DNA of 64,000 bases. Source: Telopea speciosissima. Its lineage: Eukaryota > Streptophyta > Magnoliopsida > Proteales > Proteaceae. Under the pieces are notes generated by a model. The model did not search any database. It was not told the origin of the DNA and saw only the letters and a list, made by a program, of their open reading frames with translations. The stretch lies in NCBI RefSeq assembly GCF_018873765.1, contig NW_025317472.1, positions 1-64,000 of the forward strand. Direction: 5' to 3'. Made by a program: the position numbers and the translations under genes. Below, in pieces: positions 8,552 to 63,254 of the stretch (its first letter is position 1; every line of letters begins with the position of its first letter).

Positions 8552-10795
8552 CTGGCCAAGCATTGCTGCCTCTGCTTCAATTCCTCCAACGCCCCATCCA
8601 GCATCTCCTAACCCATCGATCATAGTTGTATGGGAATCAGTTCCAACCATACTATCAGGGTACAGCAGGCTATCAGTGTTGAATACAACCCGAGATCAAG
8701 GTATTCCAGGTTAACCTGAGTTTCAATAGTAATTTACTCAGTACATAAATATAAAAAATGATAACATTAGTGTGAGTAACACAAGCCCATTTGAAGATTT
8801 CATATATTCTACTTATCAATTGAGAGAAGGAATATTTAGAGACAGAATCAAGGAAGGAATTATGTAGATCTGAAATCTAAAGGTAGAACCCATGTCCCGG
8901 AATATTGCTATTTCTGATGATAGTAACTCCCTAACCTGATGCACGATACCAGAGCCTGGAGGAACAACAAACATGTTGTGAAAAGCAGTAGATCCCCATT
9001 TAAGAAAAGCAAAGCTCTCCTTGTTCCTCTGGAATTCAAGATCCATATTTGCCTTCACTGCATTTTCTGATCTTGCTACATCCATCTGAACAGAATGATC
9101 AACAACAAGATCCACTGGGACCTGCATAAAATATCAATTTTTAGAAGAAAGTTAGGAAACCTTCCCCCAAAGGAAAGAAAATATATAATAGAAATACAAG
9201 AATAACAGGAATACATCTTACACTCAAAATATTAAATGCAGAAAAAGGTCATCTAGAGAAAAAGCACATTAAAATAAAGTGGAATGAGTGACACAGAATC
9301 AAATATATGCTCTATAATGTTACCTAGAAAGAAGAACAGAAGTAGTTCATCGAAGGCCACTTCAGTAATTATTAGTTCCTCACTGTTTTCATGATGGGGA
9401 AGATTTTGGATATCCAACCCTGAAGAACTTACAAGGAATAAATATTGTAATGAAAAGGAAAAATATCACCACCTACCAAGGGGTTAATCTTGCTAGAATC
9501 ACTGCCAAGCTTGTTCATAGCATCCCTCATGCAAGCAAGGTCCACCACAATTGGTACACCAGTAAAATCCTAACCAACAAATGTAGGTCATAAAATTTGG
9601 CAGAAATGTAATAAATTAAAACTACTGTGCAATTACATCTTCAAAAAACAAAACTACTACATAATTAGCGTAACGATAAACACCTGCAGGAGAACACGGG
9701 CAGGCTTGAAAGGAATCTCGACTTGTTTGGGAGAAGTATTCTCCCAATCAATAATCTTCTCAACATCTTCCTTGGTGACTTGGAAGTTGTCACAGTTACG
9801 GATTGCCGATTCAAGAAGGATCCTGACGGAGTACGGCAACTTATCTATGATGCACACAATGTAAAGATGAGTGGATTTCTAAGAGATTGTGATTTTGGGA
9901 ACCTGATAACAATATAAAAATTCAGAGTATTTCAAACTTCAAATCCGAGATAGGCTCATAAAATAGAAGGTCTCCTTCAATGCTGAAGAGAAACGGGAAC
10001 TCATGAGGGGAAACAAGAAAAAAGGAACGTCATGAAGTCCAAGACCAACCTAAAGGATGACAAAATATATAATTTGCACATAGGAGCAGAAGAACAAAGG
10101 GGAGCAGCGATAATGCCACTTACCGATCCTTGGATCATTCAGAGCAGGTAGGCTATAGTACTTTCCAAACTCGCCACCCCCAGAAGATTTCCCTTGAAAG
10201 TATTCTCAGCAACTGATCCAACACATATTCACAAACAGAACTCAATCAATTATGTCGATCTCTGGAACAGTATTAACTCGAGAATCTAACCATCTATACA
10301 AATCGTCTTTCTCTAGTAATACGCTGAGTTGGATTAGTTAATCCAACAATTTAAGTTGTTCTCTCAATACATAAAAAGCATAAATCAGGGATGAATATTC
10401 ATAAAAGAACTCTCATCAACCAAGGCACATTTGTAATCCATCTGGTCCGATTTCAAAACACTACTCAGAAATTAAAGCAAATATCTCCAGGAAGAACGAA
10501 ACAGGTCTGCGTCGAAAGTCGTACCCATAGTAGCGATCTTGCGCTGAAAGCGTTCAATCACAGGAGCAGCAGTCCTGGTCTGAGCCCTAAGACTAGCAGG
10601 AGACCTCCAATCGACACCGTGGCTCCAGCGAGGAACCGAGGATCGGATGGAACGGATAGCAGTGGAGAAGCAAATGATCGGGCTTTGATGAGAGAAGGAG
10701 AGGAGGAGCGAGGAAGAGGAGAAGTTAAGGGTTCTAGAGATGGAAGGCAAGGATAAGGATGATAAGAAACGAACCCTAGAAGCTCTGAGCAGCAC
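8552..10795 (-). pseudogene. ACO: Aconitate hydratase, mitochondrial type, 5' part only
   Basis: Six minus-strand exons encode the start of a plant aconitase (citrate to isocitrate, TCA cycle): 10525-10795, 10124-10212, 9684-9844, 9477-9569, 8936-9121 and 8552-8715. Exon 1 is Ser/Arg-rich like a mitochondrial presequence and reaches APVIERFQRKIATM. Next come [39 protein letters not shown], a [18 protein letters not shown] exon, [16 protein letters not shown] and [16 protein letters not shown]. The last is followed by a good GTATAG donor but no further exon, so the Fe-S cysteines and the rest of the roughly 900-residue enzyme are missing. Exon 2 is short, joining [10 protein letters not shown] without the usual linker. 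Exon 6 has a 2-nt TC insertion after VNLEYL that shifts the frame. Both the truncation and the shift mark it as a pseudogene. Confidence 0.88.
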
Positions 10796-32827: not shown

Positions 32828-32995
32828 TTGAAAATATAAACCAAAAAGATGTCTCCATATGGGCCGGGCCTTTCTTTTTGCCACATGGCAACTCAACTAG
32901 CAGCATAATCTGAGATTTTTGTGAATAATTTGGAAAAATAAAAGATCCTTGTGACAATAATAATTTACTTTTAAATAAAAACAAACCTGGGAAAA
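32828..32995. other. Segment colinear with 62120-62360
   Basis: Contains GGGCC.TT.TTTTTGCCACATGGC, AACTCAACTAGCA and TCTGAG in the same order as the region that holds the U2-derived insert. Here that insert is absent (empty site at about 32880-32915). Confidence 0.7.
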
Positions 32996-61712: not shown

Positions 61713-63254
61713 TGATGCAGATTTATCACCAAATTAGGCTTCTTTTATTAGGAATAAGTCTAGGGTTGGGATATATATATATATGTTGGGCCTTTGATCC
61801 CAAGGGTTTTCTATGTAATAGGCCACTTTAATGAGCCTAAACTAGGGGTATATAGGTTGCATACGGGATTAGCCCAATACTTAGTTTATTTTTATGTTTT
61901 TTAATTGTTGAACCGGTTCAAATTAATTGCATCCAATTGGTTCAATTTAAGTGATCATGTGACTTGGTTAAGTGGTCATGTGACAACTTAAGTGGTCATG
62001 TGATGTAAAGTTGGGCTGGATTAGGACTCTATAAGTCCAGCCACGAAGCCTCAAAGTTGGAGAACCTGCAGGTCCGTTTGGTAATGAGAAGTCATGCGAT
62101 TCGACTTCTTGGAAGTCCAGACCAAAAGATCTCTCCATGGGACCGTAATTATATTTCACCTAGTGTGCAGGGAATGTTCACGTACATAAATAACTCAGCC
62201 GTTCAGATGGAATCATGGGCCTTATTTTTTGCCACATGGCAATTCAACTAGCATTTTTTTTTTTTATGAAAGTGTAATCACACAAACTAGCATTTGATCT
62301 TAGCCAAAAGACCGAGGAAAGGTACTGACAATTCAACTAGCACTGATAGTCTGAGTGATGCAGGTTCATCCTAGAAATTGGCTTATTTCTTTAGAAATAG
62401 GCCTAGGATTGGGTAATATACATGTTGGGCCTTTGTTCCCAAGGGTTTTCTATGTATTGGGCCACTTTAATGAGCCTAAACTAGGGGTACATAGGTTGCA
62501 TACGGGATTAGCCTAATACTTAGTTTATTTTTATGTTTTTTAAATTGAACCGGTTTAAATTGGTTGTATCCAATTGGTTCAATTTAAGTGATCATATGAC
62601 TTCGTTAAGTGGTCATGTGATATAAGTTGGGCTGGATTAGGACTCTATAAGTCCAGCCATGTTTTGAGTTTATTTCCTTTAGTATTCTAGTTTCCTAGTC
62701 AGTTTAAGTTACCTAATAGGTTAGGGATAGGGTTAGGCCATTCATTTTTAGTGTCTAAGTTTATTTTTGAGTCTTCTATATAAGTTTGTAAGGGAGGCCA
62801 GCATTACATACGAATTTTGATTAATAAAAACTCAGCTTTATACTTGTTGCCTTTGTTGTTGCCTTTGCTCCATCGTGAGTGTGCCTTGTGAGTAATATCA
62901 AGGTGAAGGGATTGGTGGATCTCCAATCGACTCCTTGCATCGTGAAGATCGGGAGGGCTGCTACTTATCTCCTTGCATCTTGTAGATCGGGAGACCCCAT
63001 TGTTCATCTTCAAAGCTGCTGCCATTGAAGATCTCTTCAAATCCAGTAAGTTTGAATCTGAACTTTGTTTAAACCTTCTTCTTCTCACTCTTACCCTAAC
63101 TAGGATTCCTCCATAACTTTAAATCTGTCCATTAGTTTCAAACCAAACTTTCAGCATACATCCCTTACATCATTATTGACACTCGATCCAAGTTTCATCA
63201 AACCCCCACCACCCTAAACCCTAGAATCCCCTACTCCTACCTAGGACTACATTA
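61713..63254. mobile_element. LTR-element remnant with host DNA between its two LTRs
   Basis: An AGGTT duplication (61708-61712 and 63255-63259) bounds a composite in the 3' end of mTERF copy 6. It holds a truncated LTR (61713-62042, TGATGCAGATTTATC to AAGTCCAGCC), then 314 bp that match mTERF-flank DNA rather than retroelement (62043-62355), then a longer related LTR (62356-63254, TGATGCAGGTTCATCC to GGACTACATTA). The two LTR heads are similar over ~300 bp (GGGTTTTCTATGTA, TAATGAGCCTAAACTAGGGG). No gag or pol is present. Confidence 0.75.
62254..62328 (-). ncRNA. U2 snRNA 5'-end chimera, retroposed (pseudogene)
   Basis: On the minus strand: TCAGTACCTTTCCTCGGTCT, TTTGGCTAAGATCAAATGC, then a non-U2 stretch TAGTTTGTGTGATTACACTT, then CAT and a 12-A tail. 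The first ~38 bases match the conserved 5' end of U2 snRNA (ACCTTTCTCGGCCTTTTGGC, TAAGATCAA). A perfect 14-bp duplication CAATTCAACTAGCA flanks it (62240-62253 and 62329-62342). It cannot work as U2, lacking the branch-point-binding region and Sm site. Confidence 0.9.

What the first reader, a model, noticed from the sequence alone, without database searches (positions are those of the whole stretch)
62240..62342. U2 snRNA chimera with poly(A) tail and perfect 14-bp duplication
A 75-bp minus-strand insert begins with the conserved 5' end of U2 snRNA, continues with ~28 bases that are not U2, and ends in 12 A. CAATTCAACTAGCA is perfectly repeated on both sides. The paralogous segment at about 32880-32915 (CATGGCAACTCAACTAGCAG) lacks it, giving an empty site. 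This is the structure of a LINE-mobilised chimera made by template switching, known for U6/L1 and other snRNA chimeras in mammals; I know of no common plant example. It could also be a young snRNA-derived SINE.
Basis: partly seen in the sequence, partly recalled or inferred. Interest (0 to 1): 0.82.

Follow-up and report, generated by a model that had tools for sequence, protein, structure and literature searches.

The report
U2 snRNA pseudogene split by SINE
What looked like a one-step fusion of a splicing RNA with a jumping element in a plant genome is most likely two ordinary insertions stacked at one spot: a shortened copy of U2 RNA, then the tail end of a dispersed short retroelement.

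Summary
In detail: U2 5' end, foreign bases, 12 A, 14-bp perfect flanking repeats, and an empty related site at 32866-32914. The tail is the 3' end of a dispersed SINE-like family, not diverged U2. A pattern across the joint (up to 3 mismatches, no gaps) finds 8 places in the 823-Mb assembly, all at the same site: one insertion copied by duplication, not a SINE family. Two features argue against a one-step template switch. First, the first 8 bases of the target duplication (TGCTAGTT; 11 with three A) recur exactly between U2 and tail. Second, U2 stops at nt 34, as in two independent tailless U2 retrocopies of this genome. Best reading: a tailless U2 retrocopy (17-bp duplication), then a severely 5'-truncated SINE copy inserted into its 3' duplication. 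Each part is a known kind; tailless U2 copies are reported from maize. No U2-only intermediate was found, so a one-step switch with one extra base is not excluded. A more novel lead is the SINE itself: its consensus carries a plant snRNA-type USE and TATA at Pol III-like spacing, and some insertions are multimers.

The parts
62326..62342 (-). 5' copy of the outer (first) target duplication, TGCTAGTTGAATTGTCA here (one mismatch to the 3' copy; perfect in L006, L007, L008)
62291..62325 (-). U2 snRNA nt 1-34 (35 bases with one extra C, present in the 8-copy consensus); reads AATG at nt 31-34 like the U2 gene variant L037
62285..62295 (-). AAATGCTAGTT: target-site start (TGCTAGTT) repeated between U2 and SINE tail; 5' copy of the inner (second) duplication; overlaps the last 5 bases of the U2 part
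62266..62284 (-). 3' end of a dispersed SINE-like family, TGTGTGATTACACTTTCAT (the match extends 3 bases further, to 62287, as GTT shared with the duplication)
62254..62265 (-). A-tail of the SINE copy, 12 A
62246..62256 (-). 3' copy of the inner duplication AAATGCTAGTT (its AAA overlaps the A-tail)
62237..62253 (-). 3' copy of the outer target duplication TGCTAGTTGAATTGCCA
62041..63191 (+). stretch shared with the 7 other copies that carry the same insertion (92-96% identical; begins at 62044-62045 in the two C11 copies), i.e. duplicated DNA around the insertion
   Evidence: one search finds 8 full copies of the left flank
32866..32914 (+). related empty site: one copy of the target, no insert

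Best explanation
Two successive LINE-type retro-insertions at one site. Step 1 (inferred): a LINE-encoded endonuclease and reverse transcriptase nicked the target, and the primer annealed inside U2 RNA, at or next to the UAGU of the branch-point recognition region. It copied U2 from nt 34 back to nt 1, leaving a tailless U2 retrocopy flanked by a 17-bp duplication. Step 2 (inferred): a polyadenylated RNA of the genome's SINE-like family was copied for only about 19 to 22 nt plus A-tail and inserted 8 bases into the 3' duplication of the U2 copy, making a second, nested 8 to 11-bp duplication (AAATGCTAGTT). If there were two insertions, their order follows from the sequence: only an uninterrupted target could give the 17-bp copy beside U2. 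Step 3 (shown): the finished composite exists 8 times with its surrounding DNA. No function is proposed; it is a retro-insertion relic.
For: The inner copy of the target start is exact. TGCTAGTT has a background of 5 in 522,954 strand-positions, and AAATGCTAGTT 0 (20 loci plus the window to 62000). U2 with the A32 variant of gene L037 plus target plus SINE consensus gives the joint without any unexplained base. Of 18 U2-head sites read (of 29 found), two are clear U2 copies ending at nt 34 directly against perfect duplications: L050 (16 bp, TAGAAACGAATCTCTA) and L038 (18 bp, TAGCATGAATCCTATAGG, with 21 extra bases 5' of U2). Both targets begin with TAG, as U2 continues. The SINE-like family makes comparably severe truncations with duplications, e.g. 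L014 (33 bases between the called repeats) and L028 (40).
Against: No copy with U2 alone was found: all 8 full left-flank copies found carry both parts. The inner repeat was noticed after the fact; allowing for any of the 75 places in the insert, its chance rises to just under 1e-3 (my estimate's frequency). UAGU in U2 and TAGTTTGTG in some SINE copies overlap, so a direct switch needs only one extra base. An insertion landing within 17 bp of a rare U2 copy is itself improbable. The extra C inside the U2 part is explained by no model here (a mutation before the duplications is assumed). The nt-34 end is not the rule: other truncated U2 heads read here stop near nt 39 (L042), 51 (L047) and 62 (L045), without a clear duplication.
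Confidence: 0.83

Rival explanations
1. One-step chimera: reverse transcriptase started on the A-tail of SINE RNA, copied 21 to 25 nt, and switched to U2 RNA at a TAGT overlap, then copied U2 to its 5' end; one 17-bp duplication flanks the product.
For: The 17-bp duplication flanks the whole; both parts have the same orientation; U2 variant AATGTAGT and SINE variant TAGTTTGTG (seen in L017 and L023) share TAGT; snRNA/LINE chimeras are well known in mammals (PMC13174262 sections 10 and 17) and RNA/SINE/LINE chimeras in Magnaporthe (PMC2104539 abstract).
Against: Needs one non-templated C with the rarer SINE variant, three bases with the consensus, and the resulting 8-mer must by chance equal the first 8 bases of the target (background about 1e-5). 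The U2 endpoint coincides with that of two SINE-free tailless copies.
Confidence: 0.11
2. One complex event: during a single target-primed reaction both RNAs were used, with the target sequence itself copied between them.
For: Explains the target copy at the joint and the joint presence in the 8 copies.
Against: I know of no described intermediate that gives this order simply; two separate insertions give it without extra assumptions.
Confidence: 0.04
3. A young U2-headed SINE family (U2 head plus this tail).
For: The tail family is dispersed.
Against: Pattern across the joint with up to 3 mismatches: 8 sites in 823 Mb, all the same insertion site; the 32 other scored hits cover only query positions 53-101, the tail side. 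Copies with gaps at the joint would be missed.
Confidence: 0.01
4. The tail is diverged U2.
For: The SINE consensus aligns weakly with U2 (CCTTTTGG and a few more; shuffle p 0.035 for the U2 gene, 0.007 for its first 60 nt).
Against: The tail 23-mer is found intact at most of the 25 SINE tails of the 20 loci fetched; Rfam does not list U2 for a full SINE copy (L021) up to E 10.
Confidence: 0.01

Closest known systems
Tailless retropseudogenes (therian mammals, green anole, 8 U2 cases in Zea mays; Noll et al. 2015, PMC5322556, passages and section 16 seen)
   Same: 3'-truncated U2 from nt 1, no A-tail at the break, flanking duplications, target resembling the U2 sequence at the break; the break stretch is taken as single-stranded from general knowledge
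   Different: Here a SINE fragment was later inserted into the 3' duplication; target complementarity is only about 3 to 4 bases and not A-rich (my reading)
snRNA/LINE-1 chimeras (U6/L1, U2/L1 and others; PMC13174262, sections 10 and 17 seen)
   Same: snRNA head, retroelement 3' end with A-tail, flanking duplication, same orientation
   Different: SINE-like 3' end in place of LINE; target sequence between the parts; U2 is 3'-truncated
Magnaporthe WEIRD/Mg-SINE/MGL chimeras (PMC2104539, abstract seen)
   Same: small RNA joined to a SINE part; 14-bp repeats in the tripartite case
   Different: there the fusion is recurrent (33 bipartite elements plus one tripartite); here one site only
Truncated copies of a dispersed plant SINE-like family (unnamed here)
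   Same: 3' end sequence, A-tail, duplication
   Different: only 19 to 22 nt of the element are present

Membership tests
Tailless retropseudogene (U2 part) | Copy starts at nt 1 of the source RNA | tested here: met
   L007/L008 begin ATACC directly after the duplication
Tailless retropseudogene (U2 part) | 3'-truncated, no A-tail; break abuts the target duplication | tested here: met
   U2 to nt 34 (ATG), overlapping TGCTAGTT by 2 bases; depends on reading TGCTAGTT as target
Tailless retropseudogene (U2 part) | Flanking target duplication of about 8-30 bp | tested here: met
   17 bp
Tailless retropseudogene (U2 part) | Recurrent break at a defined position | tested here: inconclusive
   L038 and L050 end at the same nt 34 with duplications (2 of 18 sites read); L042, L047 and L045 stop near nt 39, 51 and 62 without clear duplications
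Tailless retropseudogene (U2 part) | Mobilised by an L1-type LINE | not tested
   no LINE searched in this genome
SINE copy (tail part) | 3' end of a multi-copy family with A-tail | tested here: met
SINE copy (tail part) | Own target duplication | tested here: met
   AAATGCTAGTT at 62285-62295 and 62246-62256; its AAA overlaps the A-tail, so 8 bp are certain
SINE copy (tail part) | Internal A and B boxes | not tested
   A/B boxes not scanned; copies show USE and TATA
LINE-mobilised template-switch chimera | Two RNA copies joined directly | tested here: inconclusive
   8 bases of target sequence stand between them; a direct joint remains possible only with one extra base and a chance match
LINE-mobilised template-switch chimera | Parts arrived together | tested here: inconclusive
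   8 of 8 copies found carry both, but they share one insertion site
snRNA-derived SINE family | Many copies with different duplications | tested here: not met

The most novel reading that the evidence does not exclude
The tail comes from a new kind of plant SINE that carries a U6-type external promoter (USE plus TATA at Pol III spacing). It keeps that promoter through retrotransposition because its RNAs or cDNAs are joined end to end, giving duplication-flanked multimers. Under this reading an element driven like an snRNA gene shares a nuclear reverse-transcription pool with U2, and the window joint could be a true U2/SINE switch.
Probability: 0.25. Interest if true: 0.68.

Novelty: new member of a known kind. 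Interest (0 to 1): 0.36.

Why it matters
It is a clean example of how two nested retro-insertions can imitate a template-switch chimera, and of a test that separates them: look for target sequence at the joint. It adds the window copy, L038 and L050 to the eight maize U2 cases reported in PMC5322556, these three breaking at the branch-point recognition region. The parent SINE with an snRNA-type promoter would be the more surprising thing if its transcription were shown.

Tried and rejected
LINE 3' end as source of the tail: 20 of the 32 tail-only places listed were fetched. They show a short element with USE and TATA, or shorter pieces of it, upstream of the tail (L026 is unclear beyond a few bases); LINE ORFs were not searched for. 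U2-headed SINE family: rejected. SINE derived from U2: weak alignment only, no U2 in Rfam for the one SINE copy tested. Known name for the SINE: the titles and abstract starts listed by paper searches named no plant SINE with a USE; this is no proof of novelty. PMC10886601 (passages) covers tRNA and 5S sequences in TRIMs and has no hit for 'snRNA' or 'upstream sequence element'. More empty sites, a count of the SINE and U6 genes as a spacing yardstick did not complete; the U2 genes were used instead.

Full report
Observation. The insert at 62254-62328 on the minus strand and its 14-bp perfect flanking repeats are as described. Eight copies in the 823-Mb host assembly share the same insert and flanks. 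Their alignment extends the duplication to 17 bp, TGCTAGTTGAATTGCCA, perfect on both sides in L006, L007 and L008 (3 of 8), and shows U2 beginning exactly at nt 1 (ATACC) in L007 and L008. A related sequence at 32866-32914 holds one copy of the target and no insert (50 bp, 86%, E 3.6e-10).

What the parts are. The head is plant U2: 29 sites with up to 3 mismatches in the genome, 8 of them exact over 31 nt, none in the reversed-pattern control. Of five loci tested for a promoter, L036, L037 and L039 show a USE or near-USE and TATA at 33, 34 and 34 bases spacing; L044 and L048 were fetched with too little upstream DNA to tell. L037 reads AATG at nt 31-34, as the insert does. The tail is the 3' end of a dispersed short element. 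In one search (40 of 328 first-look candidates scored) 32 further hits cover only the tail side, query positions 53-101. I fetched 20 of those 32; they hold 25 tails within 3 edits, attached to a unit of about 130 bases or to shorter pieces of it. By the automatic search, 18 of 25 tails have a candidate duplication; I regard three of these (L021 at 9557, L024, L026) as spurious, leaving 15 of 25.

One site, not a family. A pattern across the joint with up to 3 mismatches finds 8 places and no others; copies with gaps there would be missed. All 8 are at the same target site. The seven other copies share a stretch of about 1.15 kb with the window at 92-96%. Two lie on C11 120 kb apart, six on small contigs, the window's included. 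The left flank was found 8 times in full, each time beside the insert. So this is one insertion followed by duplication of the region.

One step or two. Reading the minus strand: duplication, U2 nt 1-34 ending GATCAAATG, then C, TAGTT, then TGTGTGATTACACTTTCAT, 12 A, duplication. The bases TGCTAGTT between U2 and the SINE tail are the first 8 bases of the duplication, and with AAA 11 bases repeat exactly (62285-62295, 62246-62256). In 20 loci plus the window to 62000 TGCTAGTT occurs 5 times in 522,954 strand-positions, AAATGCTAGTT not at all. Under a direct switch the joint needs one extra C if the SINE template had the TAG variant seen in L017 and L023, three extra bases with the consensus, and then agrees with the target by chance. 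Under two insertions nothing is left over at the joint. If there were two, U2 came first: the 17-bp copy next to the U2 5' end can only come from an uninterrupted target.

Independent support. Of 18 U2-head sites read (11 of 29 were not), L050 is U2 nt 1-34 between perfect 16-bp repeats, and L038 is U2 nt 1-34 between 18-bp repeats with 21 extra bases at the 5' side (lengths read from its printed sequences). In both the target begins with TAG, which is also how U2 continues (nt 35-37, the branch-point recognition region; numbering from the sequence, function from general knowledge). The window target begins TGCTAGT against U2 TGTAGT. This is the picture of internal priming described as tailless retropseudogenes in PMC5322556 (passages and section 16 seen), which also reports eight U2 cases in Zea mays. 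Not all truncated heads fit: L042, L047 and L045 stop near nt 39, 51 and 62 with no duplication found, and L043, L049 and L052 show only 8 to 10-base repeats that may be chance. L040 is different again: U2 nt 1-31 plus 21 other bases between 10-bp repeats, a possible real joint of two RNAs or a diverged case.

Against this reading: no U2-only intermediate was found in this assembly; the inner repeat was noticed after the fact; and the extra C within U2 is unexplained. A one-step switch therefore keeps about one chance in ten.

The parent SINE. The 12-copy consensus carries GTCCCACATCG, a perfect plant USE (consensus RTCCCACATCG in PMC9845283, passage), and TATAT. Of 11 units that have a USE-like element, a TATA[AT] and a tail, 7 have the USE exact and 7 have 26 bases between USE and TATA; 2 have 24, one 19, one 13. 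Units without such a TATA, such as L021 near 8001, fall out of this count. Three of the host's U2 genes show 33-34, and plant Pol III genes have these elements one helical turn closer than Pol II ones (PMC9845283). Five insertions (L010, L015, L019, L025, L027) hold more than one unit between one pair of duplications, the first truncated (in L010 only a remnant of the tail) and the later ones longer. The inserts of L012 and L027 begin within about 10 bases of the start expected some 30 bases after TATA (my count). These are sequence facts; transcription is inferred, and A and B boxes were not scanned.

Verdict. Most likely a composite of two known kinds of retro-insertion.

Noticed in passing
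L009-L028, e.g. L021 near 9464-9590, L025 near 9783-9900: SINE-like family with a plant snRNA USE (GTCCCACATCG exact in 7 of 11 units) and TATA at 26 bases spacing (7 of 11), against 33-34 in three of the host's U2 genes; a possible U6-type promoter carried by a retroelement.
   Followed up: partly
L010, L015, L019, L025, L027: Insertions of more than one head-to-tail SINE unit between one pair of target duplications, first unit 5'-truncated: end-to-end template jumping or read-through of tandem copies.
   Followed up: partly
L040: U2 nt 1-31 followed by 21 non-U2 bases and flanked by 10-bp repeats: candidate for a genuine two-RNA joint.
   Followed up: no
L041 and L046: Two loci share a diverged double U2-like stretch in the same context, so a repeat seems to contain U2-like pieces.
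   Followed up: no
L039: U2 gene copy with USE and TATA whose body is interrupted after about nt 60 by an insert starting AAGGGG and ending CCCTT, MITE-like.
   Followed up: no
window 18.7-64 kb, several segments: Paralogous gene segments (near 18.7-19.4, 26-28, 38-40.5, 46-48, 50-51 and 60.5-64 kb); the ORFs look like mTERF proteins by recall, no family search was run.
   Followed up: no
window 61713-62043 and 62356-62659: Direct repeats of about 300 bases (83% identical); the 62356-62480 part is very high copy in the genome (2174 first-look candidates, 40 scored) and ends 14 bases from the insertion site.
   Followed up: no
window 62165-62214: Short high-copy piece in the left flank; at some places elsewhere it lies close together in both orientations, MITE-like.
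   Followed up: no
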